Made by a program: the position numbers and the translations under genes | The notes under the pieces: generated by a model | The model's database searches: none | The model's input: the letters and a program-made list of their open reading frames with translations, nothing else | What the model was told of the DNA's origin: nothing | Part shown: in pieces, positions 17,861-64,000 of the stretch | How positions within the stretch are numbered: the stretch's first letter is position 1 | Layout: every line of letters begins with the position of its first letter | From: Jaapia argillacea MUCL 33604 | Lineage: Eukaryota; Basidiomycota; Agaricomycetes; Jaapiales; Jaapiaceae | DNA: 64,000 nt | Direction: 5' to 3' | Assembly (NCBI GenBank): GCA_000697665.1 | Contig: KL197711.1 | Location: forward strand, 921,142 to 985,141

Positions 17861-20800
17861 TCATGGACCAAGCGATTTGAGTTCGGCGACAAGACGCTAG
17901 CAAAATGTATTGTTAGCAAATTTCATGACAATCGCGAGAACGTAACATACCTCTGCCTCTCTTAACAAATCTTCAGGGTCCATCTCATCAGGATGACTTC
18001 TTCCCAATTTAATTCCGTATTGAAGTAGCTGGCGCATATAGTAGGGATTGATAACCGCCTCATCAGGACCTGGTCCTTGTTGTGCAGGAGGATCAGCTGC
18101 TAGGCATCGCGAGTCAGGAAGGCGCTATTAATCATCGAGTTTGTGTTACTTACGATCTTTCATCGCTAGCCAGGGATGATCCAAAAGTTCTGGAATGGCT
18201 GCCCGCTCTTTGGGATTTCGAACCAGACAACTCCTCATACTCGCGATTACCCTCTTCGGAACAGGCTTTGTCAGGTGGTCAAGCTTTTTCGGAGGTGTCG
18301 ACGACCCCTCGCTGGTACGCGATGGGATAGATGGGGTCGAGTTTTCCGGGAATTCGATGACGTGTGCTGAATCAGGGATCGCCTTCATCTTCTGGATCAT
18401 CGAGAGATGGTGGAAGGGGGGATGGCCGTAGACCATTTGGTAGAGGATGCAGCCCAATGACCACACATCACTGGGCCTGCCAACTTTTAGACGACGCATG
18501 CCCTCTGGAACCTCGATCGCCTCGGGGCTCATATAGTTCACTGTGCCGATCTGAGAGCATGTCAGTCTATGACTCTGAAATACACACATATATATGCTAA
18601 CCTGGTGGTCTCGCTGAATATTAGTCGTGTCGTTTGCTATCGCATTCGCAATACCGAAGTCGATCAACTTCAGTTGCCCGCGGACGAGGACGAAGTTTGC
18701 GGGCTTGAGGTCGGAATGCACAATTTTTTCTTCGTGAATGACATGCACGGCTTCTAACATCTGTGGTTCCGAGTTAACAGGACGTTCACGAAGCAGTAAT
18801 GGCTATCGCCCAACCTGTTGCCAATAGTATACAATCCAAGCCATATTCATGGGCTTCTTCTGCTGCTCCTGCAGCAGGCGCGCAAAGTCTGGAGGAGCAG
18901 AATGATTAGGCTCAGGGGACGGATCGGCGTGGATGTAAACTACGCACCAATCTCTCCGCACTCCATGACCAACATCAAATGGCCTTTTGAGCCGCCAGAT
19001 CCCGCCTTCACCTCGCTGTCAAGCAGCCTAATAATCCGACTATTCCCTTCCAACCTCTTCAACAACGCAATCTCATTCATATAACCTCTCATCGTGTCGG
19101 CGTCCGTTTGATCCAATGATACTCGTTTGATGGCATGTATCTCGTTAGAACCACTCATAACACGGTACACCCTCGAAGAACCACCCTTTCCAATCAAGTC
19201 TAACCGTGCATACGCCTTTTTATTGACCTGCGAAAGGAAACGTCAGCTTTGGCAACGGTGAAAGGGGTAAGCTACACACAATCATATTCCGCGGTCGTAC
19301 GTCGTTTGCAGCGACTGTTGAAGCAGAGGGAACGGATGAAGGTCGTGGGGGCGCTGGGGCAGGAGCAGCCTGCTGTACCGATAGAGCTGGCCGGGAGGAT
19401 TTCTTGGCAAAGCCCACTTCTAACCCATCATCATCTCCCCCCGAGTCCCTGCTATTCCCGTTGTCCCCTGAAGCCCAGGTTTTCCCAACGCCCTTCGCTG
19501 TAGAGGATGGAGGCGGTGCTAGCATCCCACTAGTCGTCGGAGGTTCAGGGGCCGTTGGACTGCGTCGATGCCGAGCTGCTGCTCCTGCAGCAGCTGTGAC
19601 ACTGCGTGCCGAAGGAGACAATCGAGGTGGTAGTTCCACAGCCGTCGGGGAGCCTGAAGCTGTTTGAGGAGGTACAGACCGCAAAGTGTCGGAGTCCTTC
19701 CGTTGGTGGGTGTATAAAGGACGGAGGTTCGCATTCGAGCTTTTATGTGTCGGCGACGGAGATTGTCTTTCTGCTCGCATAGCTGCTCGTCCTAGCAGAT
19801 GAAGGGTTCGTCCCAAACTTGAAGATATGGGAAAAAATTAATACTCACGTTCGGCTTCAGCTGCTACCGCCGCTGCATCTTCAGCTTGTCGACGAAGGTA
19901 GTCTACAATGAACACATCAGACACGATGATGAAGGAGATAAATGATACAGGTCGTGGGCAAGGGCCACAGCATGTATCTGACGTAAAAACTCACCTGCCT
20001 CCTCTTGAGCAAGTCTTTCTTGTCTCATCTTTTCTTCCAATGTCACTCGCCGCGCACCTCCATTGGTGCTGTGGCCGAGACTTGAGCCTGGCCTCGCAGG
20101 TTGCAAGTATTGAGGCGGATTCACTGGGATATACTGATTGTCAGGTGCTAAGGAGGTGGTGTCAGTATAGAGACGGGGACGTAGAAGAGTGTGTGTACCG
20201 ATCGCATCACTCAAACTAGCTGATCGTCTCGGACGGATGCTTGTAGACACTGCCAAGGTAGTCGTTGTAGGAAGGTCCGCATAACTCCTCCCTCGACCAA
20301 AACTATTCGGATTGTAGTCGGATGGTGTTTCTGAGAGTTATGAAGTCAATATCTGTAATACAATACACCAAAATATTGCGGAATGAAACAGGCGACACTG
20401 TCTATGCAGGTATCAAGGCAATGAGCAGAATATGAAACACACCTCCATCTGTGTCGTCGCCCCCTTGAGTCACTAGCTGGGTATCTCCGCCTTCATCTTC
20501 GGAGATCTTCTCGAAGCCCATACCAGTCGCATACTTGTTCCCTATCCATGATCGACTGGTCGTCCGGGATATGGGAGCCTTCCGCGCGTAGAGGTCTCTC
20601 TGTGGAACTGGGACAACGTCTGCCAAGGGACGCTGCTGCGAACTAGATCCTGTTGCCACGCTGGAGGATCGAGTTCCCGTTGCAGAAGTCGGTCGATCAC
20701 CAGACGAGCCTGAAGCTTGACGAGATATTAGTGGTGGTGACGCACGTCGTCCCTCATCGCCACTCGAGGATGCCTGTATGTTCATCAAATTCTCCTTCTC

Positions 20801-21445
20801 TTCCAACTTCCTCCTTTCAAGCTCCTCCAATTCAGTGCGATTCCTCTCCTCCGATTCGCGATGTTGTTCGAGTGTTATGCGTTGTGCGGGGGCGAGTTTA
20901 CGAGCCGTACTTCGAGTGGCGGATGACAGTTGACCTACAGTGGGGCGAAGAACCGAAGCACTGGGTGTCGCAGCGTTCATGATAGCGGGGCCTGAAGCGA
21001 CGCGTTGGAAAGATCGAACGGTTCCGGCGCCATTGACCACAGAGGGCGGCTGAGGTGCGCTGCTCGAAATGAACGCGCTTTCCGAACGAGATAGAGAATC
21101 TCGACGTGCTGGCGAGTTCAAGGATATTGTACCTGCGCCTGATGATATCTCAATCGCCGAAGGAGGCGGCGACGGCCGTTGCTCTACTTTGTCGTGGTCC
21201 AGAGGCGTGGGAGGAGACGACTGGCCTGATTTATGGGAGCCCTTGGAGACGCGAACGTAGTTGCCAGCAGAGTCAAACTCATAGTCAAATGAGAGTTCGA
21301 AGACCGAAGAATCGTCTGAAGATGCTAATGAGGGAGGTCGTCGCGTATTTGAAGACGAGCCTGCGTTGCTTGAAGGTGGTGTTATCGGTGGTGAAAGTCG
21401 AGGAATGGAGGACATTTGGCCAGTCGACGAGGCTGTCGCGAGCAT
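17861..21445 (-). CDS. MPS1: Mps1/TTK-type dual-specificity protein kinase
   Basis: Spindle-assembly-checkpoint and spindle-pole-duplication kinase acting at kinetochores (family knowledge). The N-terminal ~450 residues are Ser/Pro-rich and probably disordered. The kinase domain starts at [14 protein letters not shown] (near 19195) and shows HAIKRVSL, the hinge [10 protein letters not shown], catalytic loop [12 protein letters not shown] (HSD instead of HRD, as is typical of Mps1), [10 protein letters not shown], and the activation segment [12 protein letters not shown], then [16 protein letters not shown]. The tail ends about [11 protein letters not shown] at 17861. Several short introns split the gene. 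The ATG at 21445 ([11 protein letters not shown]) is the upstream choice. An in-frame ATG ten codons later is possible. Confidence 0.88.
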
Positions 21446-32928: not shown

Positions 32929-33792
32929 ATGAGCTTACCACCACCATATGGGGACCAGGCGTACTGCTATGTCTCAGCGCTCGAAGCCGGCCATCTCGAT
33001 ATCCCGTGTCACCTCGTCATCACAGATGTGCCGAAAGATGAGGTGAACCCAGCCCCGATTATTGCGTTTATCTTGCACCATAGCAAGACCAACGCCAACT
33101 TTCTCGTCGATCTCGGTATACGTCGGGACTTGGAGAGCTACCCACCAGCGGTTAGGGAGCACATTCGAGATGCCCCCGTTCCTGTACGGATCTCCCAAGA
33201 TGTTGTTCAGTCACTCGAGAAAGGAGGGTTACTTCCTTCGCAAATCACCGATATATGCCTGACCCACGTTCATTGGGATCACGTCGGCGACCCTAATCCA
33301 TTCACAAACGCAACATTCCTTGTTGGGGAGGAATCACGCTCTCTTTTCGACCCCGGATATCCTGCCGATCCCAAGTCAGCGTTCGCAGCTGATCTTCTTC
33401 CCTTGGATCGAACCAAATTCCTATCCAAGGAGACATGGGCACCATTGGGCCCCTTTCCCCACGCACTCGACTTTTTTGGAGACGGCAGTCTCTATATTGT
33501 CGATGCTCCAGGTCACTTGCCAGGACACGTCAATATCTTGGCACGCACATCATCCGATGGGGGGTGGATCTACCTTGCGGGAGACAGCGCACATGACTGG
33601 CGGCTTCTCAGAGGTGAAGCCAAAATTTCGGGCTCACACGTTGATCCCCACGTCGCTGGGCAACATATCGAACGCATAAAGGCGTTGATGGAGATACCAC
33701 GAGTTCGTGTGGTGTTGGCACATGATACCCCTTGGTACACGGATAATCGGGATGGACCTGCATATTGGCCCGGACATATTGAATCGCTCTAG
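32929..33792 (+). CDS. Metallo-beta-lactamase-fold hydrolase, lactonase-like (copy 1)
   Basis: Intronless frame of 287 residues from the ATG at 32929 (MSLPPPYGDQAYCYVSALEA). It shows the metal-binding motif HVHWDHVGD, downstream histidine in DAPGHLPGHVN, the bridging aspartate in LAGDSAHD, and a final metal histidine in VVLAHDTPWY. The fold is the one used by quorum-quenching AHL lactonases, and fungi have intracellular relatives. The natural substrate here is unknown. A paralogue lies at 39852-40721 on the other strand. Being intronless in an intron-rich neighbourhood, it may derive from a retrocopy or a transferred bacterial gene, but that is inference. Confidence 0.88.
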   Translation: MSLPPPYGDQAYCYVSALEAGHLDIPCHLVITDVPKDEVNPAPIIAFILHHSKTNANFLVDLGIRRDLESYPPAVREHIRDAPVPVRISQDVVQSLEKGGLLPSQITDICLTHVHWDHVGDPNPFTNATFLVGEESRSLFDPGYPADPKSAFAADLLPLDRTKFLSKETWAPLGPFPHALDFFGDGSLYIVDAPGHLPGHVNILARTSSDGGWIYLAGDSAHDWRLLRGEAKISGSHVDPHVAGQHIERIKALMEIPRVRVVLAHDTPWYTDNRDGPAYWPGHIESL

Positions 33793-33923: not shown

Positions 33924-35461
33924 TCAACCCAGCTTCACTTTCTGCCGCAACGCAGATTCTTTTTGCATCGCCCTGACGTCCCGGATATTTTCGGGGTGTG
34001 TAACCCACACTCCATCATCACCCTTTTCTCCCCAATGGAACGTATGCATCGTGTCAACCTCAAAGCCCTCCGTCCACTTCTGCCGCACGAAAGCGGCATT
34101 GAATGGAGGATACCATATCCACCACTGATTTCCCAAATAAACCTATCAGATTCGTCATGGAAGGGACTCTAGCGTGGCGACTTACATGATCAACGAAAAG
34201 GATGGGCTCCGTTGGTGGAGCGACAAGGTGCACCGCTGTAGGAGTTGCAATCTCCAAAAAACAATCCGTCTCCAAAAACAAGCCGAGTACGTCAAGAAAC
34301 TCATCTCGATATCGACCAGGTATGTATATGGTGTCGGCTGAGCCCCCAACCAATCGTGTCTCACCATTGGTGTATCCATTAGCCATTCGTTCCCTCATGT
34401 AGATGGGAACTTTACGGAATGCCTTCATACAGACACCAAGGCCAACATGTGGGTCACTAAGAAAAGCAATGGAAAATAAGCAGACCAGATGCATGGACAT
34501 TTGAGCTCGAGCATACGTACCCCCACCTGATAATGGGAGCGGTTGGGCTCAGTAGAGGAATTTCTTCGAGAGCAGGGTTACGCACCACCAATCAGGCCCC
34601 CACCCCCTCCAAGTTTCCGTCCAATCGACTTCCGGATCAGGAGACACATTCAATGGAGGCGGATGTCGAGTCTTATTCCCATTCTCCTCCTCATCCCCAA
34701 GAGCAGGATTGTACACATACTGAGCCCATGGCGAATGATACCAGAAGAGGTCTTGGTCAAATTGTTGGAGGCGTGGGATATTAAGTAGTGTATCAAAGGG
34801 TGCCCAAAGGTAGCCCTTGTAGCAGGGGTGAGCGGAGAGAGCCGTATAAAGCATGTGGTGAGCCATCTTGCGGGTGACAAATAATGAGCTGGGGGAGAAT
34901 GGGGTAGAATGGGAATATATCGCACCCGACCTGCCATTTTGTAATTTTTGTGATCGGTGAGGTTTTCATCGGATTGATATGAATCGACCAGGACATCATA
35001 AGAATGGGCGAAACCCTTGTCTTCCCGACTAGCGGGACCAATGAAAATTATCTGTTAATATGGTCAGCAAGAAGGTCAAGACGGTGTCGAATGAGCAAAG
35101 CCCAGCCACGATTTCTGAAGTTACATACATTAGGAAACCATTCCCCATAAACCTCCCTATAGGAATCCAAATTCCCGTTGTACCTCGCATGACTGAAAAA
35201 TACGATCAAAAGAACGTCATCAAATTCATGGTAAGTTCTCGTGTTGCTCCGAGAATCTGGCAGTGGCAAAGGCGGGCGACGACATTCGGCTTGATGAGAA
35301 AGCAGGAGAGATGATAGTGATGAAAACGATGGGTGAGAAGGGGTTGATGAGGTGATTCGACGAATGAAATGACCGGGGAAGGCCAAAGCCAGGTAAATTA
35401 GTATGGCAGAGAAGGTCAAAGCACCGATGGAGCGCCGGGCTTGCTCATGGATGTGCTTCAT
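33924..35461 (-). CDS. Single-TM luminal protein, possible glycosyltransferase; may be fused to the transporter upstream
   Basis: Five or so exons. The ATG at 35461 gives MKHIHEQARRSIGALTFSAI, a membrane helix near residues 14-33, then a Pro-rich stem and a globular domain: DDVLLIVFFSHARYNGNLDS, EVYGEWFPN, then by splicing IIFIGPASREDKGFAHSYDV and KNYKMAGRMAHHMLY, FDTLLNIPRLQQFDQDLFWY, WRGWGPDWW, LVGGSADTIYIPGRYRDEFL, ETDCFLEIATP, and WWIWYPPFNAAFVRQKW. These blocks look conserved in Agaricomycetes, but I cannot name the family. The type II topology and tryptophan-rich pattern suggest a Golgi or secretory-pathway glycosyltransferase (inference). Its ATG lies only 12 bp after the transporter stop, and an in-phase intron could join both into one protein. 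Confidence 0.7.
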
Positions 35462-35473
35462 GACGAGGTGTGT

Positions 35474-37064
35474 TCAGTGACTTTGTATGGTACGATGGCA
35501 ATCCCTGACACCTACGGAAGCCTTAGTAGAGTGATGACCCTCCTCTTCTGTGCCGTCCTCTGGCAGAGATCCTGAAAGGGACTCGCCACTGGCTCGAGTT
35601 AGGTAACTTGCAGCCGCAGCAATCACGACCAAACACCCAGAAACGAGACCAAGAGGATGATTGTGCGAGGATATTGCTATTGAGGCAATGAAGAGGGAAG
35701 CACCCAAGGAGCGTGTGACGCCTTCCATCACCGCGTCATAATCTGATGTATGGTTAGATCATAGGACGACTCGATGAAAATAGTCAAAGAATGAAGGGAA
35801 CATACGACAGATCATCCACAGCCCAAGGATATCAAACACAGCTCGGATGAGAGGAAGAATAAGTGATGAGATGTTAAATCCCGAATGTGGAAATGGTCGA
35901 GAACCCCCAGAACTAGATATATGTCCCAGAAGAGACCCGGTAGTGTGAAAAATGAGGCTGAACGTGAAGAAGACGATATTGATAGCGTTGAATACGGAGA
36001 GAGACTTTCGTGCATTGCGTGATTTATAAAGCTGACGAGCAGAGGATGAGAGAAGGCGAAACTAAAGATCTTGTGAGTGTGACCTACGTGATCGATGAGT
36101 ACAAAGATCAGAGAGCGAAACAATGCAAACGCAGTCAGAGTGTACAGGGATGAAGATCCCGGGGTCTTGTCAGAGGGGAGGATCGTGCTCTATGGGTGAA
36201 ATAGATTGGAGTGGTTGTTGTTGAAACGTTAAGTTCCCTTACTTTGATTATGAATAAACCGCAGAGCTACAGTATAGTTGAATCCGCAAATTGATGTGGT
36301 AAGTGCCGAGAAAGCTTACCTGCAGTGCGACGGCCTGCCATTGGGCAATGCAGAACGACCTCATAAGGAAACAATGCAGCGCTACCATAGAGAGTAGGGC
36401 TCCAAGAGAAACGACGAAGAAAGGCAATAAAGGATCAGACTCGACTTGGGTGATCGAAAGCTGAGAGAACAAATGTAAGTCCTAAACGCGAATCAATTCA
36501 GCACACGACCCGCTCACGAGTTGATCATAATACGCCTGGACGATCGCAATGGCCCCCATCAAAACAATGGTACCCTTGCCTAGAGAAGGGATTGTAGTCG
36601 TCTCAACGCGCTCACTGCCATCCCGCTGCATTGTTGGTCGAAGGTCACTCAGAGGTTGCTCCTCGTCGCTGCTCCCAGGCCTTGACTGCGGTTGCACATT
36701 CCCCCAGGGATGATACGCAACACTGATTCCAAGCTTGACTGCCTCGACTATGGCTGAACCACCAGGAGTACGTGGAACACCAGCATTAACGGCATTGTTG
36801 TCAATGACGTGTAGGAAAACAAAGATAGCCTGGCACAGAATAAGTTGAAGGTATGTTTGATTGAGAGAAAATGAGTACCACTGGAAACCAGGGTGGAAAT
36901 TGTAGGGCTTTCAGGCGTGCAATATTGCCAGGCCATGGGCGGGGCATCGAAACGAGGAATCGACCGGCTGATGGTTGCGCCCGACGTTGCCATCCCTGGA
37001 ACTCACCATCATGACGTGAACTTTGCGCCATCAATTCGCTCCGATTTGGGATGTCGGTTGCCAT
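35474..37064 (-). CDS. Nucleotide-sugar transporter, SLC35A-like
   Basis: Golgi/ER antiporter family. The ATG at 37064 (MATDIPNRSELMAQSSRHDG) leads to PGNIARLKALQFPPWFP, a 52-nt intron, then AIFVFLHVIDNNAVNAGVP and SAIVEAVKLGISVAY, the second-helix motif seen in SLC35A as AEVLKLL. Later exons give GKGTIVLMGAIAIVQAYYDQ, SLGALLSMVALHCFLMRSF, IAQWQAVALQLCGLFIIKST, a VYKSRNARKSLSVFNAINI segment, and the C-terminal YDAVMEGVTRSLGASLF with SSHNHPLGLVSGCLVVIAAA, matching the tail of this family. About ten helices. The substrate (UDP-galactose, UDP-GlcNAc or other) cannot be told. It starts just 89 bases after the DAHP synthase stop and ends 12 bases before the next gene, an unusually tight block. N-terminal exon choice is moderately certain. 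Confidence 0.75.
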
Positions 37065-37153: not shown

Positions 37154-38589
<1,436 letters not shown>

Positions 38590-39851: not shown

Positions 39852-40721
39852 CTACAACGAAGGGATCTTCCCAGGCCAAAAGGCACTCCCGCCCTTGTTC
39901 TCCGAGTACCAACCTGCATCATGGGCCAGCATCACTCTCACTTTCTCATTCTCCTGGACCAATTTCCGTATCCTCCCCGCATGTTCCTCGGCAGCTTGCG
40001 TATCCCGATGCGACCCCTCTACCATCTGCGCTTCCCCGCTCAAAAGCCGCCGGTCCACCATACTATCCGCAGCGAGGTAGATCCAGCCTCCATCAGCTGA
40101 GGTCCGAGCGAGGACATTAATATGTCCAGGAAGGTGGCCCGGCGCGTCGATGATGTACAGACTGCCATCACCGTAAAAGTCAAGTGCGCGGGGGAACGGA
40201 CCTAAGGGAGGCCAAGATGCCGGAGAGAGGAATCGGGTTCGGTGAGCGGGCAGGAGGTTGGAGTCGAACCCTGAATCGGGGTCGTCAGGATATCCTGGGT
40301 TGAAAAGGGTACGACTCTCGACCCCGGTGAGGAAAGTCGCGTTGGGGAATTGGGAAGGATCTCCTGCGTGATCCCAATGACAGTGCGAGAGACATACGGT
40401 GGTCACCTCTGAAGGAGGTAAACCGCCTTTCTCCAAGAATGCTGGGACATCTATAGCGATTTTGGAGAAGAAGGGTCCGTTTCGGATCCTTTCGAGAACG
40501 ATGCGGGGGTATTTTTCGACGTCGTGACGGATCCCGAGATCGAAGACAAAGTTGGCTTTGGTTTGGAAGTGTTGGATGATGAATGCTAGTGCTGGTGCGG
40601 TTACGATTTCGTCTTCTTTGACTCTGGTGATGAAGAAGTGGAGGGGGATGTCGACTTGACCACCCTCCAGTGCGGATACATTGCAGAATGCTTGGTTTGC
40701 AACGGGGGGAGGCAGCGACAT
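39852..40721 (-). CDS. Metallo-beta-lactamase-fold hydrolase, lactonase-like (copy 2)
   Basis: Second intronless copy, 289 residues from the ATG at 40721 (MSLPPPVANQAFCNVSALEG). Same motif order: HCHWDHAGDP, DAPGHLPGHIN, WIYLAADSMVDRR, VMLAHDAGWY. The Gly of the LAGD motif in copy 1 is Ala here (LAAD), but the aspartate is kept. By eye about 60% of residues match copy 1, with conserved termini (MSLPPP and the final PSL/ESL). The pair lies in inverted orientation, 6 kb apart with unrelated genes between. The 5' flank does not look conserved. Both may act on lactones or similar esters. No signal peptide, so intracellular. Confidence 0.88.
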   Translation of the reverse strand: MSLPPPVANQAFCNVSALEGGQVDIPLHFFITRVKEDEIVTAPALAFIIQHFQTKANFVFDLGIRHDVEKYPRIVLERIRNGPFFSKIAIDVPAFLEKGGLPPSEVTTVCLSHCHWDHAGDPSQFPNATFLTGVESRTLFNPGYPDDPDSGFDSNLLPAHRTRFLSPASWPPLGPFPRALDFYGDGSLYIIDAPGHLPGHINVLARTSADGGWIYLAADSMVDRRLLSGEAQMVEGSHRDTQAAEEHAGRIRKLVQENEKVRVMLAHDAGWYSENKGGSAFWPGKIPSL

Positions 40722-51786: not shown

Positions 51787-51864
51787 TGAGACTTTTTCTT
51801 TCGATTTTACTTGTCCTGTATACACCGATGTGTGTTTGAACGTAGACCTGTTCCTACCGTCACT

Positions 51865-52457
51865 GCAGACGGGTGAGGATAAACCCTCCTGGCATATTGT
51901 TGACATAGCCATCCAAATTTGATGAAGATATACATGCCTGTGGCGCGTGAACGCAGCCAATTGTACTTATAGTTTACTTATACCGATGAGTATTCCCGTG
52001 TGCCTCAGCCACATGGCGGAATTTAACTATGTTTCAAAATATACCACTTGCCTGTGTCGAAAGGACGTATTATAAAAATAACCCTAAGGATATGGCCCAA
52101 GGACCAAGCCATGCAGTATTTTTTGAATATGTCAGTGTGCTACTGATCTCCCCTCGCTGCTAATGGTCCTGCTACTTGCACGGTACGGATATATTCAAAA
52201 AATACTGCATGGCTTGGTCCCTGGGCCATATCCTTAGGGTTATTTTTATAATATATCCTTTCGACACAGGCAAGTGGTATATTTTGAGATATAGTTTAAA
52301 TTCCGCCATGTGGCTGAGGCACGCCGGAATACTCATCGGTATAAGTAAACTATAAGTACAATTGGCTGCATTCACGCGCCACAGGCATGTATATCTTCAT
52401 CAAATTTGGATGGCTATGTCAACAATATGCCAGGGGGGTTTATCCTCACCCGCCTGC
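51865..52457. repeat. Long near-perfect palindrome (hairpin or foldback MITE)
   Basis: Two inverted arms, about 51865-52131 and 52190-52457, each about 267 bases, with a spacer of roughly 58 bases. By eye the arms differ at only about ten positions, over 95% identity. Matching examples: CATATTGTTGACATAGCCAT in the left arm and its complement near 52420, and AACCCTAAGGATATGGCCCA against 52225-52250. It begins 79 bases after the GT90 stop, with no open frame and no transposase. No target-site duplication was found at the edges. A foldback MITE is the simplest reading. Transcribed with the GT90 3' region it would form a very long double-stranded RNA. Confidence 0.85.
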
Positions 52458-52975
52458 GGTGCGTCCAAGTATTGTTCTCTCCAAATCCGAATCGACGTTG
52501 CGATCCCAACTCAACTCACGTGAAACGACGCGTCGAGACGAGCCGCCCTGCCTGTCAGTGTCAGGCGGCCTTTTGAATCACCTCAACTCCTCTTCCAGCT
52601 TGGACAGCTTGAACTCTGATATGGACACACCATCACCTTACTGAGTGGGAAGTTCGGAATTCTGTTTTTTTTGTCCACTGGAGCTTCCCAACCTTCGAAG
52701 TTGCTTTTCTTTCATGGAATCACATCCAAATCCGACATATCCACAAGTGGTGGGACATTTGTCCAAATTGCCAGCGGTCAGAGTCAGCATTGCATTGACT
52801 TGGTGGAACTTTGAGCTAGGGGAGCTCAACGTCTCTGCTGTATCTTTGCGAATTCTCCCTCGGCGAAAATGAGTGAGTGTACCAACCTTGAAACTAGTTC
52901 TGTACCACAGGATTTTGATTCGATCTACTTGACCAGCCCCCCAACTTCCAAGAGATTCCTGTCAGCCAACCCGAC

Positions 52976-53042: not shown

Positions 53043-56000
53043 ATGAACAACTTCCAACAAATTCTTCACCTCTTCCCTTTCAGGGTGTCTCTCATCCTCT
53101 CCCTCATACAACTCGCAGTCACTCCCAACGATGTCTTCGATGCAATGCCCGATGAAGTCTTCGTCGTCAGCTTGCAACCCACGAGTACGGAGGTCCTTCC
53201 ACCCTCCGCCACTTTGGAGCGCATCATGGTCGAGTATACGGGTTTCTCGCCTGTCGCCGCTGTTTGGTTCTTTGTCCTGTTGGGATTTCTTCAGATCGTT
53301 GCTCGTGTTTCCAGACGAGCGCGACTTTTCCTGTGGGCGTTGACCTCAGCCGTGCTGATAGGTGGAGGTGGTTCGAGTATGAACCCAGTTTTCCTAATCC
53401 AATTTGTCCAATCAGCCTCGCTAGGGACGCAAGATATGGTGTCGTTCTACCTGAACCCAGCCATCAAGTTCCTCGAGCAGAATGCTCCCATCTCATTGGT
53501 GAACATCGGGAGGGTGAGTACCTTCTCGCCCACCATACCACTCGGACTGATCAGTTTCGAATCCCCTCAGGCTTGTATCAGCGTTTGGTCGCACTCGTTA
53601 GCCTCCTTGCATGCCGAACTCTGGCAGACTGGCCACCTGTCGGGAGGAAGTATGCCTGGTTTGCTGCGATGCTGCCGTTCAGCACATGCGATGTTCATCT
53701 CATTGGTAAGTTCGACTTCCCTTCTAGAGCACTCGGTCACTTATTTGCTCATCTTTGTTTTGCAGTGCACCCGACTCGCCTCCATATCCACGTTGGAGGT
53801 ACTGGGCGCGCTCAGTGACGCTTGCGTGGCGATGCTCGCCGTTATCATCTGTTGGGCAGTCATCCAATATATTAGCAGAATAGGTTCTACAAGGACACAT
53901 CGCCACTGGTGCTTCATCGCAACTTCCGTTCTCATAGTTGCTACTGCCATACAGTTTTTCGTGAGTGGTATTCGGTTGCCACTTTTATCCTCGCATGATT
54001 TGACGACCAGTCCCAGCTCATTCCAGAGGCCGACGGATGCTTGCGTTCAATCATCGCATCAATTTCGAACCGTGCGCCGAGTCTCACCGTCTCATTCTCG
54101 GTACATTTCTCCGACATCCATCCTGTGCGAGCGCTTATCCCGTGTACACAGAATCATCGCATCGAAGTTAACTTCACGTCCGCTGTCTGCGCCATCTCCA
54201 TTATCAAGCTCATCACCGGTTGCTTCCGTTTTGCCAAGTCCTTATTCACCAGGATCGATGGTCGTCAAAAGGCCAGCGCGATCAGAGGTATCAACTCGGA
54301 ACAACTTTCTCATAGCCGTGGACAATCCGCTGTTAGTTCCCATATATGGGATCACACGACATTGGTTGAGCTCCCCCGGTTTGCGGTCGCACATCATCTC
54401 GGTAACCGCGATGCTTTTACAATCCGTTTCCCGTTACTTATGCTCAACTTATATCTTGCCTCAGACCACGAGAACACTCTCGTTGGTGGCGGTACTGCGA
54501 CCTCAAAATTCTCTGCCTCCCACTCCGGCGGCCCAAACCCGCTCACTCGTAGCGTCACCCGCATTGTGACCAATTCAACCAACTTTTCCAAATTCGAACA
54601 ATTCTTACGCCTGACAATCACGGTGAGCGCCGTCGTGTTTCCCCTCCAGTTACATGCCTCTGATCGGTTTCTCCTCCTAGGTTCTCACTGCAACATGTGA
54701 GCTGGTATGCACCTCCGTACGCTCGAAGTTTTGTCGGATTGGCCACCCGACTAGCAGAGACGTATTGGACCGGTTGCACCAGACGTGGATGGACCTGCAG
54801 CTCACCTCCATGACAGTAAGTAAATCCTTTCCAAGTTGCTTTCAATGTAATTGACTGGTCTGTGTGCATCTCCAGGACCACCTCATTGACATGGTCTGCG
54901 GCGGATTCCGAAGCGTGGAGGTGCCGATAGGTCTACCTGCCGTTCCGCAGCCGACATGGACTCCCTGGTCTCTCCTTGTGAAAATCACATCTCTTCTGAT
55001 TATCTCCTGGGCAATTGTTTGCGCCACGAACGCCCCGTCTCTTGCATTTTTGGTGTGTTCTACTTCCTCTCAATCTGATCCCAAATCTGATAAATCCCGA
55101 CAGCGCGCTGTGATCTCTGGCAAGCTTATCCTCACTGTCGGGTTCTTCTGGGCCTACAAATATCACGGTCGCCTGCCTTTCCTTGTATCTTCTTCCGAAA
55201 AGGACAATCTCCCCGGTGGTTTACTCGACAGTGCCTCCTTCTGCTCAGACGTATTCCCTGTTCATTGTCGTGAAACCTCGCTCGATTCGGGGACAATATT
55301 CACCCTACCGAGATCGGAGTCGAGCCTGGACCTGTGGATTAAAACAATCGTGCAGAACGCCGCCGCCGACAAGTCCAATTTGCCTCCATCGGCAGACGCA
55401 TCTGTCGAGTATGTGGTTCTACCGACACAACCTGAATCTGGGGTCAGCCACCATCAGCGAAGTCTTTCTGACATACCTCGTTCCTCACGCTTGAACCACT
55501 CTCTCGTCGGATCACTACTCCCTGATAGCTCCTCATCCTCACGGCCAAGGTTATCCCGTAGTCTCAGCCTGGTCGACATTTTTTCTCCAAGGCAGGGTTT
55601 CGTCGATGCTAAATTCAAGTTGTACGGTAACAAACGGGCTAAGCTCGCCTCTGACGCCGACATGACCCCGAGCTTTGCCAACTTCCCTTCCTCGGCTTGT
55701 CTCCTACCACCCAAGACAGGATCCTCCACTGCTGTTTCTGTCGTATCTTCTGTAGGCCGAGCGCCTGGGCGACCTACCACTCCTGTCGATCTTGAGAAAT
55801 CCTTCGATCTGAGCGAAGGGCGCAGCCTCCCTGGTGACGAGTCATCTCTTGGGTTTTCACGCCTCAGAGCGGATCTTCAGCAACTAGACGACGAACGAAG
55901 GCAAATCTCGCAGATGGAACGCAAGGCTCTTCGCTCGGCTGACCACAGGATACGTCGTGTACGGCGAGACATCAACGAGGGAGTGGAAGCCCTCCGAGAT

Positions 56001-56819
56001 GTCAAGCTCGGTATCGATGTCCTGGTTGCCCGCTGCTCGGACCTTGCAGCGCCCCCTCTTGCTGAGTTGCCATACCCTTTCAATTCGACCACGTCCGTGA
56101 AGAGTCTTGCGTCTCTCCCAGCCGAATCCTCTGGCTACCTGGAAGCATGCCAGGTGAACTACGATGTCGCTGCCATGGATCACTCCACTGTCGACACGTT
56201 CGCTTCGACCTCGGCATCGACGCCATCTTCTCGCAGCTTATGTTCTCCTTACCCTTCATCCCTTGATCTCACAAGCAATGAGCCAAGTGATGTCTCGGAC
56301 GATCTCCTTTCCGAGTTAGCGATGCTCCGTGCTGGCCTTCGCGACATGAATCATTCCAGGGATCGAGCTTCTCGGGTCGCCGCAAAGGAACGACGAGCAA
56401 TCGGCCGGCATCTCAAATCCATCCGCAAGGGCATTGAAGAAGGCGGAGAGATAGCCAAGGAGGTTAGGGAGTCGGCGAGAGCGGCCGAGTTGTTGCACCT
56501 TCAAGAACTTGAAGAGGCACTCGAAGACGTCCTGCCTGCGAAGCCGTCCTTCCTTTGGCTATGCGATGAGCCTCTCCGAGCCCTGGATCCGTCCACGGAC
56601 TTGGTGTTTACCCTGAGCGACTTGGCCACTTCTTCCTCAACCTTCTTCCTCGACGCTATCGACTCTCCGCCACCCGATCTTCCTCCCCCAGTCGTGGAAG
56701 TCGTCTCTCCCTCTGAGTCTGACAGCCAGATGGATATGTCATTTAAGTCTGCCGAGTTCGTTGCTTCGTCCTCCTCGTGCGCAATACCTGGTCATGCATA
56801 TACAGGACCAGTGCTGTGA
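53043..56819 (+). CDS. Unrecognised multi-TM plus coiled-coil protein, family copy 2
   Basis: Multi-exon gene. From the ATG at 53043: MNNFQQILHLFPFRVSLILS, matching the start of copy 1 (NFLPFRLSLMFS), then AAVWFFVLLGFLQIVARVSR, ARLFLWALTSAVLIGGGGSS, an intron at about 53515, ISTLEVLGALSDACVAMLAV, and WCFIATSVLIVATAIQFF. The last long exon (about 54880-56819) has a helix WSLLVKITSLLIISWAIVCA and another, GKLILTVGFFWAYKYHGRLP, then a soluble part with two charged coiled-coil regions (about 55860-56030, RLRADLQQLDDERRQISQME; and 56300-56530, KERRAIGRHLKSIRKGIEEG). It ends SSSSCAIPGHAYTGPVL. No known domain. Topology suggests a membrane channel- or scaffold-like protein, but function is unknown. 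Middle exons (53.5-54.9 kb) are less certain. Confidence 0.6.
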
Positions 56820-57105
56820 CCTCTCTCTTCTCACGTGAGCAGGCATTGTCTCTATCCCTATCAACTGTTTCTCATACTTTACGCCATAGGTCTGTTATCG
56901 TACTGGCTCGCCCTTCCCTTCCCTTTGACCCCTTCCTTCAGCCTGTTCCTATCTCGCCGACGGTTTGATGATTCCGACTCAATGTGCTACTTCTCTCTCA
57001 TCATAAACACGCTTTCGGATCTAATATTCGAATCGTGATCCCTCATTCTGCATGTCCTGCTTTGTTCCTTTGAAAACATCCCCCCAACCTAGATAGATAC
57101 GCTCC
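55775..57105 (+). repeat. Inverted duplication, arm 1
   Basis: Spans the coiled-coil part of copy 2 plus about 285 bases of 3' flank. It matches, in reverse, 62674-64000, including non-coding sequence such as GAATCGTGATCCCTCATTCT near 57031. The arms are estimated by eye at about 85% identity. The inner border lies near 57105. The outer border is not visible because arm 2 runs off the window. Confidence 0.8.
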
Positions 57106-60061: not shown

Positions 60062-62251
60062 ATGTTCTCCCTCACACTCGCTCTTTTGTTGGTTCTGGTC
60101 ACCATCGCTAATGCTCTCCCTGTAAAAGTTACTCGGCCTGGCGCTGAGATCTACAACAACTATCCGATGATAAACCTTAACGCCAGGCGTCCAGACGCAG
60201 CGCTTGTAATGCCGCTCTCTGTGAACTTGCCATTGCCTACTGGGGCACCTTCTTCTGCTCTTCCGTCCACATCCTCGACCTCCACTTCACCTTCGAGCGC
60301 CACATCTTCACCCAGCTCGACACCTTCAAGTTCATCCAGTGCAGCTTCCTCCAGCGCCGCATCCGCATCTTCTCCTTCTCAACCCTCTTCCGCAACCACC
60401 TCCACCTCCACCCCTTCAGCAACCCCGTCCCCTCCCCCATCGTCCGGTTCCCCCAAATATGTCGTAGCCCACCACATGGTCGGCAACACCTTCCCCTACA
60501 CCCTATCCAACTGGGCAGCCGATATCGCACTCGCTCACTCTAGCGGTATCGATGGGTTCGCTCTGAATGTCGGAAGTGACTCTTGGCAACCTGCCCGAGT
60601 AGCCGATGCGTAAGTCCTCCCAGTTTATGTCTCCAGACTGTCACAATTAACCTGAGCTCTTTTTTTTTTGACCGATAGATATCAAGCTGCTCTTCAATCA
60701 GGTTTAGACTTCAAACTCTTCCTTTCCTTCGACATGAGGTTCGTCTCCCCTCCCTTATCCTCTCCGCTTCCCCACTAAAATTCTCACCCCATCAGCTCCC
60801 TCCCCTGCGCCTCCCCCAACGACGCCCAAACCCTCCGCACTTACATCACAACCTACTCCTCCCACCCTAACCAACTCAAAATGTCCTCCCGCACCTTCGC
60901 CTCTACATTCGCAGGCGAATCATGTGCATTCGGTCAAGGATCCGTCCCAACTGGATGGTCAAGTCAATTCACACAACACCCAGAGCTAACCGGCGCCAAC
61001 GCCGTTTACTTCGCACCCAGTTTCTTTGTCGATCCTGGTACCTTTGGGACCTTTGCAGATGTTATGGATGGGGATTTTAACGTCAGTGTTGCCTGTTCCG
61101 TTTTCCGTTCAAGCGTAATACTAACTTGTTTGTGCTTTGTTTAGTTCAACTCTGGCTGGCCCATTGACCTAACTGCTTCATCCGCTCAATCTTTAATCGC
61201 GAACCTTAGCGCGAACCTTAACGACCTCGACCAAGCAGCCACTCAAGTTATTGGAAAAGTCATCGGAACAACCGATACTGATACCCAACATCTTAATGCC
61301 CTCGCTGCCATGCCCTCTACGAGCGATGGAGAGAAGAGAGCATACGTAGCTGCTGTCAGCCCTTGGTTCTTCACACATTACAGCCCCCAGACTTTTCATA
61401 AGAACGTCAGTGGTTCTTCCTCCTCCCCCCACTCGCATCGTGGAACTGATGGATTTTTGGACAGTTCATCTATATGGCGGACTCACATTTGTACCCGACG
61501 AGATGGGAGTCGTTGGTTAATATTAGGGATCAAGTTGATATCGTGGAAATCGTCACCTGGAATGACTATGGTACATCATCGATCTCTCTTTTCGCCCTCT
61601 CAATAAAATCTGATCGCGTCTGCCTTCCTTTCAGGTGAATCACACTACATCGGTCCCATCGAAGGTGCTCAGCCAAATAGCCAAGCATGGGTTGACGGAC
61701 TCAACCACACCGGTATGCCTCTCATTCCTAATTCGAATTTCTATACTCCTTTCTAAAAACATACTTTCCAGGATGGTTGGACATGACAAATTACTACGCA
61801 ACCGCCTTCAAGACTGGTTCCTTCCCCACCATAACAGAAGACAAGATATACCTCTGGGCACGCACACATCCCAAAGACGCAAACGTCGCAGACCCAGTTG
61901 GTAAACCAACCAATTTCGAACTCGTAAGTCCATCCTTCTCTTCCTCCTCTCTATTGAACAACTCTTAACCGTTGGCCGATCGCATCATAGACCCAGGACA
62001 CACTATGGGCCGTAGTCCAAACAACAGCTCCATCCACAGTAACACTCTCAACATCTCCTACCACCTCCCAAACTTTCTCCGTCCCCTCGGGTGTCTCGAA
62101 ACTCTCCATGCCTCTCACGCCGGGAGGAAATATGAAGGGCGTCATCACGAGGAACGGCGCGGATGTGGTGGATTTGGAGCCTGAGGGATATGTGTTTGAT
62201 GCGAACCCTACAAGTTACAACTTTAACGCTTTCGTGGCGTATTCGGGGTGA
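60062..62251 (+). CDS. Secreted alpha-1,3-glucanase, GH71 (mutanase type)
   Basis: Endo-alpha-1,3-glucanase that hydrolyses fungal cell-wall alpha-glucan. Signal peptide MFSLTLALLLVLVTIANA, then a propeptide-like region and a long Ser/Thr/Pro linker (codons about 60240-60450), unusual in that it precedes the catalytic domain. GH71 blocks: KYVVAHHMVGNTFPYTLSNW, AADIALAHSSGIDGFALNVG, FKLFLSFDMSSLPCASPNDA, RTFASTFAGESCAFGQ, GANAVYFAPSFFVDPGTFGT, AYVAAVSPWFFTHYSPQTFH, RWESLVNIRDQVDIVEIVTW, NDYGESHYIGPIEGAQPNSQ. About eight exons with short introns. The catalytic Asp/Glu residues lie in the EIVTWNDYGESHY and GFALNVGSD regions (inferred). The C-terminal beta-domain ends YNFNAFVAYSG. It may act in wall remodelling or on other fungi. 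Confidence 0.92.
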
Positions 62252-62673: not shown

Positions 62674-64000
62674 GGACCGTATCTATCTAGCTTGGGATGT
62701 TGTCGAAGGGACAAATGAGGACATGCAGAATGAGGGATCACGATTCGAATATTATATCCGAAAGCGTGTTTATGATGGGAGAGAAGTAGCACATTGAGTC
62801 AAAGTCATGAAGCTGCCGGCGAGATGGGAACGAACTGAAGGAAGGGATCAAAGGGAAAGGAAAGGCGAGCCAGTAGGATAACAGGCCTAGGCACAAAGGA
62901 TGAGGAAGGGCTGATAGAGATAGAGACAATGTTGCTCACATGAGAAGAAAAAGATCATAGAACTGGTCCTATATAGTCATGACCACGTATGGCGCATGAG
63001 GATGAGGAAGCAACGAACTCGGCAGACTCGAATGATATGTCGATCTGGCTGTCTGACTCAGAGGGAGAGACGACTTCCACGACTGGGAGAGGAGGATCGG
63101 CTGGCAGAGAGACAGTGGCGTTAAGCGCGAAGATCGAGCAAGAGGAGGCCAAGTGGCTGATGGTAAACACCGAGTTTGTTGAAAGTTCCTGCGCTCGGAG
63201 AGATTCGTCACATAGCCAAAGGAAGGCCGGTTTCACAGGCTGGACGTCCTCGAGTGCCTCTTCAAGTTCTTGAAGGTGCAATAACTCGGTCGCTCTCGCC
63301 GATTCCCTAACCTCCTTAGCTATCTCTCGGCCTTCTTCAATGCCCTTGCGAATGAATTCGAGATGCCGGCCGATTGCTCGTCGCTCCTTTGCGGCGATCC
63401 GAGAAGCTCGATCCCTGGAATGATTCATGTCGAGAAGGCCAGCACGGAGCATCGCTAACTCGGAAAGGAGATCGTCCGAAACATCACTTGGCCCATTGCT
63501 TGCAAGATCGACGGATGAGAGGCAAGGAGAACATAAGCTGCGAGAAGATGGTGTCGATGTCGATGTCGAAGCGAAGGTGTCGACAGTGGAGTCACCCATG
63601 GCATGCACACCGTAGTTCATCTGCCAAGCTTCCAGGTAATCAGGGGAGTCGGATCGGAGGGACGTGAGACTCTTCACGGTCGTGGACGAATCGAAAGGGC
63701 ATGGCAACTCAGCAAGAGCGGGCGCTGCAAGGTCCGAGCAGCGGGCAACCAGGACATCGATACCGAGCTTGACATCTCGGAGGGCTTCCACTCCCTCGTT
63801 GATGTCTCGCCGGACGCGACGTATCCTGTGGTCAGCCGAGCGAAGAGCCTTGCGTTCCTTCTCTGAGATTTGCCTCCGTTCGTCGTGTAGTTGCTGAAGA
63901 TCCGCTCTGAGGCCTGAAAACCCAAGAGATGATTCGTCACCAGGTAGGCTAGGCCCTTCGCCAAGATCGAAGGATTTCTCAAGGTCGACAGGAGTGGTGG
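62674..64000 (-). repeat. Inverted duplication, arm 2 (runs off the window)
   Basis: Reverse complement of 55775-57105. The 3' flank (62674-62954) and the coding part both match. The inner border is near 62674 (GACCGTATCTATCT against AGATAGATACG at 57091). The loop between the arms is about 5.6 kb and holds the ankyrin and GH71 genes. Confidence 0.8.
62955..64000 (-). CDS. Multi-TM family gene, copy 3, C-terminal part only
   Basis: An open frame continues to the window edge, so only the coiled-coil C-terminal part is seen. It ends SSSSCAIRGHDYIGPVL and matches the same part of copy 2: the coiled coil (SDVSDDLLSELAMLRAGL, KERRAIGRHLEFIRKGIEEG, EIAKEVRESARATELLHLQE) is nearly unchanged, while linkers such as LRSDSPDYLEAWQMNYG differ more. 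The protein stays open and coiled-coil positions are conserved, which suggests selection for function rather than decay. The membrane part, if present, lies beyond 64000. Confidence 0.7.
   Translation of the reverse strand, partial: TTPVDLEKSFDLGEGPSLPGDESSLGFSGLRADLQQLHDERRQISEKERKALRSADHRIRRVRRDINEGVEALRDVKLGIDVLVARCSDLAAPALAELPCPFDSSTTVKSLTSLRSDSPDYLEAWQMNYGVHAMGDSTVDTFASTSTSTPSSRSLCSPCLSSVDLASNGPSDVSDDLLSELAMLRAGLLDMNHSRDRASRIAAKERRAIGRHLEFIRKGIEEGREIAKEVRESARATELLHLQELEEALEDVQPVKPAFLWLCDESLRAQELSTNSVFTISHLASSCSIFALNATVSLPADPPLPVVEVVSPSESDSQIDISFESAEFVASSSSCAIRGHDYIGPVL

What the first reader, a model, noticed from the sequence alone, without database searches (positions are those of the whole stretch)
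33924..37064. Nucleotide-sugar transporter possibly fused to a luminal glycosyltransferase-like protein
The transporter's TGA (35474-35476) and the next ATG (35461) are separated by 12 bases, too few for a terminator and a promoter. A 60-nt intron with a GTAGGT donor at 35515 and an AAG acceptor ending at 35456 removes the stop and joins both frames in phase. The fusion would give ten transporter helices with a cytosolic C-terminus, then one more helix that puts the glycosyltransferase-like domain in the lumen, right where the imported sugar arrives. The alternative is a bicistronic transcript. The AAG acceptor and imperfect branch point make this uncertain.
Basis: partly seen in the sequence, partly recalled or inferred. 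Interest (0 to 1): 0.75.

Follow-up and report, generated by a model that had tools for sequence, protein, structure and literature searches.

The report
Fungal transporter-like gene joined to neighbour?
In a fungal genome two membrane-protein reading frames lie in the same frame with only one stop codon and twelve bases between them; they may be one two-part protein joined by a weak intron or two proteins made from one stretch of RNA, and sequence alone cannot decide which.

Summary
A 60-nt GTAGGT...AAG intron (35515-35456) would join them in phase. It is weak: only 5 of 150 predicted window introns score as low, while 5.0% of 3000 random coding positions offer an equally good bridging intron, so splice signals are neutral. 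The short gap is poor evidence of separate genes: 8 of 150 predicted introns mimic it, and two other short-gap pairs that I tested (kinase, GH71) are single genes. Against fusion, the break falls between two complete-looking proteins. I put splice fusion at 0.47 and separate proteins at 0.43. The downstream protein matches no family searched, so 'glycosyltransferase' is unproven. No relatives of it were found, and no fungal genomes were searchable. Long cDNA reads or fungal relatives would decide.

The parts
35474..37012 (-). ORF 1: multi-helix membrane protein, 376 aa; exons 37012-37007 (uncertain), 36880-36518, 36460-36320, 36266-36243, 36189-36088, 36031-35806, 35742-35474
   Evidence: self-trained gene finder, translation of the joined exons; 8 hydrophobic segments
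33924..35461 (-). ORF 2: 405-aa type II membrane protein; exons 35461-35129, 35051-34926, 34866-34586, 34526-34521, 34456-34186, 34124-33924
   Evidence: one hydrophobic segment at residues 12-30, Ser/Thr/Pro-rich stem, one DxD (DQD 190)
35456..35515 (-). candidate 60-nt bridging intron GTAGGT...ATGAAG, with CTGA branch-like motif whose A is 18 nt before the last base
   Evidence: score 1.59; 5 of 150 predicted introns score as low or lower; best of 9 possible bridging introns
35474..35476 (-). TGA stop of ORF 1, inside the candidate intron and inside its branch-like motif
   Evidence: sequence, branch position
35459..35461 (-). ATG of ORF 2, same frame as ORF 1, inside the last six bases of the candidate intron
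   Evidence: sequence; start-context score at quantile 0.11 of 45 predicted starts
34521..34526 (-). 6-nt microexon GTGGGG of ORF 2 (skipping it also keeps the frame)
   Evidence: inferred, not verified
37154..38317 (-). upstream tandem gene: DAHP synthase (PF00793); 141 nt lie between its stop and 37012
32929..33792 (+). convergent downstream gene: metallo-beta-lactamase-fold protein (PF00753)

Best explanation
The two ORFs belong to one transcription unit, and slightly more likely than not the weak 35515-35456 intron is spliced, at least in part of the transcripts, giving one protein of about 766 aa (376 minus 13, plus 405 minus 2; 5' end uncertain). It would have an N-terminal SLC35/DMT-like multi-helix domain, an acidic cytosolic linker (PEDGTEEEGHHSTKAS), one further helix, a Ser/Thr/Pro-rich stem and a luminal domain. 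Shown: frames, phase, available splice sites, hydrophobic pattern. Inferred: one transcript, splicing, topology, Golgi location. What the protein does is a guess: tethering a luminal, possibly sugar-transferring domain to a transporter-like scaffold. Transport of a nucleotide sugar is not established.
For: Both ORFs are in one frame and a 60-nt in-phase GT-AG intron removes the only stop. Stop-then-ATG gaps of 20 nt or less are a common by-product of introns here, 8 of 150. One search lists 7 same-strand neighbouring predictions no more than 60 nt apart, ours included; I joined and scanned two of the other six, chosen because I recognised them by eye, and both are single genes with a missed intron: a kinase (intron 18814-18761, score 2.6; PF00069 spans the join) and a GH71 enzyme (61713-61771, score 6.2; PF03659 spans the join). 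AAG acceptors end 10 of 150 introns. The 39 nt from donor to stop score -1.9 to -2.8 bits as coding (but the undisputed first exon of ORF 2 scores only -1.9 to +2.7 over 327 nt, so this is weak). Published ORFs on one mushroom transcript are on average 364 nt (PMC4503453, passages) or 434 bp (PMC11590231, passages) apart, so 12 nt would be extreme.
Against: Only 5 of 150 predicted introns score as low, and all 11 other introns of the two genes score higher; donor quantile 0.07, acceptor 0.04, branch 0.15. The interior is T-poor, quantile 0.11, and its composition is at quantile 0.15-0.20 of introns. An equally good bridging intron turns up near 5.0% of random codons. The gene finder itself prefers two genes; the two-gene reading leads in 19 of 27 settings, from -2.1 to +4.8 bits. 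ORF 2 has its own ATG, charged tail, anchor and stem, and the break falls between two complete-looking proteins, unlike the two false splits, which cut through domains.
Confidence: 0.47

Rival explanations
1. Two separate proteins from tandem ORFs 12 nt apart, either on one bicistronic mRNA with reinitiation at ATG 35461 or on overlapping transcripts, the second starting inside the last exon of ORF 1.
For: Gene finder call and 19 of 27 settings; complete type II layout of ORF 2; weak bridging intron. Polycistronic transcription involves up to 8% of the transcribed genes in four Agaricomycetes (PMC4503453, abstract, first fifth of the text and passages) and 1272 loci in Ganoderma lingzhi, about 1/3 of them in frame (PMC11590231, passages). 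In an activated yeast strain 80S reinitiation falls as the spacer grows from 10 to 50 bp (PMC11952965, passages).
Against: 12 nt is far below the published mean distances. Leaky scanning is unlikely: ORF 1 holds 16 ATGs, and its 8 out-of-frame ATGs are not depleted (8.8 +/- 1.8 in synonymous shuffles). The start context of ATG 35461 is at quantile 0.11 of 45 predicted starts.
Confidence: 0.43
2. Stop-codon readthrough of the single in-frame TGA gives a minor fused isoform beside the short transporter-like protein.
For: One TGA is the only barrier between the frames.
Against: The context TGA-ACA is not the strong TGA-CTA readthrough context (recalled); predicted RNA structure around the junction is no stronger than shuffles (z 0.05).
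Confidence: 0.03
3. The stop or the short gap is an error or a strain-specific change, or the locus is decaying.
For: No second copy or relative was available to check against.
Against: The other exons of both genes are open with GT-AG introns.
Confidence: 0.07

Closest known systems
SLC35A nucleotide-sugar transporters (mouse 6oh2, maize 6i1r CMP-sialic acid transporters)
   Same: Multi-helix protein; local alignment to 6i1r scores 69 against 37.5 +/- 5.8 for class-preserving shuffles, 1 of 1000 as high; a profile of both solved proteins gives 8.1 bits, 2 of 1000 shuffles as high.
   Different: No PF04142 hit; hhalign gives probability 1% and E 0.055 in a different register; against 6oh2, 53 of 1000 shuffles score as high; the reversed ORF 1 still scores 56 against 6i1r; Lys124 and Lys272 align with Gly and Glu, Lys55 is unaligned, Tyr214 is Phe, Asn210 is kept.
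STELLO / DUF288 Golgi glycosyltransferase-like proteins
   Same: Single N-terminal anchor and C-terminal luminal domain; distantly related proteins reported in nematodes, fungi and molluscs (PMC4906169, passages). The resemblance of ORF 2 to DUF288 is recalled, a lead only.
   Different: No PF03385 or other Pfam hit; ORF 2 has one DxD, DQD 190, not shown to correspond to the DXD motifs of STELLO.
Polycistronic transcripts of Agaricomycetes
   Same: Same-strand neighbouring ORFs in a compact fungal locus.
   Different: 12-nt spacing against means of 364 nt and 434 bp; no transcript evidence here.
Transporter-glycosyltransferase assemblies of the mammalian Golgi
   Same: SLC35A transporters and GlcNAc-transferases form complexes in FRET and BiFC screens (PMC6453868, abstract).
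   Different: There the partners are separate polypeptides.

Membership tests
SLC35A nucleotide-sugar transporters | match to the family profile PF04142 | tested here: not met
   (two models of ORF 1, E up to 5 and 10)
SLC35A nucleotide-sugar transporters | sequence similarity to solved members | tested here: inconclusive
   6i1r: 1 of 1000 shuffles as high; 6oh2: 53 of 1000; reversed ORF 1 scores 56 against 69; hhalign probability 1%; phmmer none
SLC35A nucleotide-sugar transporters | ten transmembrane helices | tested here: inconclusive
   8 segments pass; yardstick 6oh2 gives 6
SLC35A nucleotide-sugar transporters | phosphate-coordinating lysines (Lys124, Lys272 of mouse CST; PMC6508934, passages) | tested here: not met
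   aligned residues Gly143 and Glu294, through a weak alignment
SLC35A nucleotide-sugar transporters | transport of a nucleotide sugar | not testable with these tools
   needs an assay
STELLO / DUF288 | match to PF03385 | tested here: not met
   (whole ORF 2 and two pieces)
STELLO / DUF288 | type II topology with luminal C-terminal domain | tested here: inconclusive
   one hydrophobic segment, residues 12-30; orientation not tested, flanking charges on both sides
STELLO / DUF288 | GT-A fold and sugar transfer | not tested
Agaricomycete polycistronic transcription unit | one RNA covering both ORFs | not testable with these tools
   no RNA data; no genome held

The most novel reading that the evidence does not exclude
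The weak intron is optional and acts as a switch: retained, it ends the transporter-like protein at TGA and leaves ATG 35461 for a separate type II protein; spliced, it removes both codons at once and ties the luminal domain to the transporter-like scaffold. The stop forms the core of the branch-like motif and the start lies in the last six bases of the intron, so one splicing event trades two proteins for one.
Probability: 0.17. Interest if true: 0.65.

Novelty: new member of a known kind. Interest (0 to 1): 0.38.

Why it matters
A transporter-like domain and a luminal enzyme-like domain in one chain would be a covalent form of the transporter-enzyme complexes proposed for the Golgi. If the two stay separate, a 12-nt, same-frame ORF pair in a nuclear genome is a clean natural test of reinitiation in mushrooms. 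In both cases the locus shows how easily a gene finder confuses a weak intron with a gene boundary.

Tried and rejected
Family searches: Pfam and NCBIfam for both proteins, PHROGs for ORF 2 only, PDB sequences for both. Weak matches were dismissed: DUF998 for ORF 1 (E 0.0086-0.011, below its cut-off), an unnamed PHROG for ORF 2 (E 0.051), four PDB chains for ORF 2 (E 0.53-1.5). Relatives by DNA: viral contigs, genome contigs (12, 54), phages and plasmids gave none; these used ORF 2 or pieces of it only, need exact 8-residue matches in the first two collections, and relatives of ORF 1 were not sought this way. Fungal genomes were not searchable. No paralogue of either protein lies in the window.

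A first gene finder trained on too little data found 10 genes and 15 introns and was discarded, though it too split the locus. RNA structure at the junction is no better than shuffles. Leaky scanning was rejected. Two paper searches aimed at transporter-glycosyltransferase fusions found 0 papers holding all their terms, which shows little, as most subscription journals are not held. The class Agaricomycetes was not tested; introns averaging about 60 nt fit a basidiomycete.

Limits: the gene finder was trained on its own predictions in 64 kb, and its 150 introns include wrong ones. The seven short-gap pairs were counted on the predictions listed (at least 240 nt). The two controls were picked because I recognised them; the other four (14149/14123, 29430/29407, 53818/53832, 54889/54891) were not scanned as joined proteins.

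Full report
What is there. On the minus strand, two ORFs follow each other. ORF 1 ends at TGA 35476-35474. ORF 2 starts at ATG 35461, 12 bases on, in the same frame. Upstream lies a DAHP synthase gene (38317-37154), downstream a convergent metallo-beta-lactamase-fold gene. The own genome is not held.

Gene models. A gene finder trained on the window itself (47 predicted genes of at least 300 nt, 150 introns) calls ORF 1 as 7 exons, 37012-35474, 376 aa, and ORF 2 as 6 exons, 35461-33924, 405 aa. ORF 2 contains a possible 6-nt microexon and an intron ending in AAG.

The candidate intron. 35515-35456, 60 nt, GTAGGT...ATGAAG. It is the best of 9 possible bridging introns, and first again in the wider list. 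Its score is 1.59; 5 of 150 predicted introns score as low or lower. Donor, acceptor and branch sit at quantiles 0.07, 0.04 and 0.15. The best branch-like motif is CTGA, formed with the stop codon itself, its A 18 nt before the last base. The interior is T-poor. An equal or better bridging intron is found near 5.0% of 3000 random codons. A real intron this weak is about as rare as a chance one this strong, so I take the signal as neutral. With the two genes left out of training (45 genes, 139 introns), the two-gene reading exceeds the fused reading by -2.1 to +4.8 bits and leads in 19 of 27 settings of model order and priors.

The short gap. Reading through donors of the 150 predicted introns, 89 meet a stop inside the intron, and 8 of the 150 then show an ATG in the downstream frame within 20 nt, 2 of them in the same frame. 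One search lists 7 same-strand neighbouring predictions no more than 60 nt apart, ours included. I recognised two of the other six, joined them and scanned them: a kinase, intron 18814-18761, score 2.6, with PF00069 running across the join; and a GH71 enzyme, intron 61713-61771, score 6.2, with PF03659 across the join. Both are single genes that the finder split wrongly. The other four were not tested. The difference is that these two breaks cut domains, whereas ours falls between two complete-looking proteins.

ORF 1. It matches no transporter family, and hhalign against two solved CMP-sialic acid transporters gives probability 1%, E 0.055. Pairwise, it aligns with the maize protein 6i1r at 69, against 37.5 +/- 5.8 for shuffles that keep residue classes in place, 1 of 1000 as high (0 of 300). 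Against mouse 6oh2 the result is ordinary, 53 of 1000 and 16 of 300. The reversed ORF 1 scores 56 against 6i1r, well above the shuffles, which takes some weight from the match. A profile of the two solved proteins gives 8.1 bits (2.9 for the reverse), with 2 of 1000 shuffles as high. I read this as a possible, very divergent SLC35/DMT-like protein, not a proven member. Through that weak alignment the lysines that coordinate the phosphate (Lys124, Lys272; PMC6508934, passages) become Gly143 and Glu294; Asn210 is kept, Tyr214 is Phe, Lys55 is unaligned.

ORF 2. One hydrophobic segment (residues 12-30), a stretch 31-77 with 45% Ser, Thr and Pro, three N-glycosylation motifs and one DxD. This is the layout of a type II Golgi enzyme, by general knowledge. 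No family or relative was found. A link to DUF288/STELLO is recalled, and Pfam does not support it; PMC4906169 (passages) mentions distant fungal relatives of STELLO.

Translation if separate. ORF 1 holds 16 ATGs, and its 8 out-of-frame ones are not depleted against 8.8 +/- 1.8 in synonymous shuffles, so leaky scanning, the main route reported in green algae (PMC11892635, passages), is unlikely. Reinitiation is possible: in an activated yeast strain it falls as the spacer lengthens (PMC11952965, passages). A separate transcript is possible too. Mushroom polycistronic ORFs lie on average 364 nt or 434 bp apart.

Verdict. One transcription unit is likely, by inference. Fusion by the weak intron (0.47) and separate proteins (0.43) are nearly even; this weighing includes my own judgement on how rare 12-nt gene spacings and two-protein fusions are, and is not a computed posterior.

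Noticed in passing
32929-33792 (+) and 39852-40721 (-): Two paralogous metallo-beta-lactamase-fold genes in opposite orientation (71% identical DNA over about 235 nt) flank the DAHP synthase / ORF 1 / ORF 2 block.
   Followed up: partly
51861-52461: The stretch matches its own reverse complement at 91% over about 600 nt, a long near-palindrome.
   Followed up: no
55776-57105 and 62674-63998: Inverted repeat of 1.3 kb at 88% identity; the ORF 54855-56816 that overlaps one copy has no Pfam match; recent duplication or mobile element.
   Followed up: no
34521-34526: A possible 6-nt exon between two regular introns in ORF 2; skipping it keeps the frame.
   Followed up: partly
17861-21445 (-): Protein kinase gene with a long N-terminal part and a weak 54-nt intron inside the kinase domain.
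   Followed up: partly
60062-62251 (+): Glycoside hydrolase family 71 gene (PF03659, E 1.1e-119 for the joined protein).
   Followed up: partly
35420-35560 (-): The donor side and the bases just before ATG 35461 can pair (AGGUGU with ACACCU), though the fold is no better than shuffles.
   Followed up: partly
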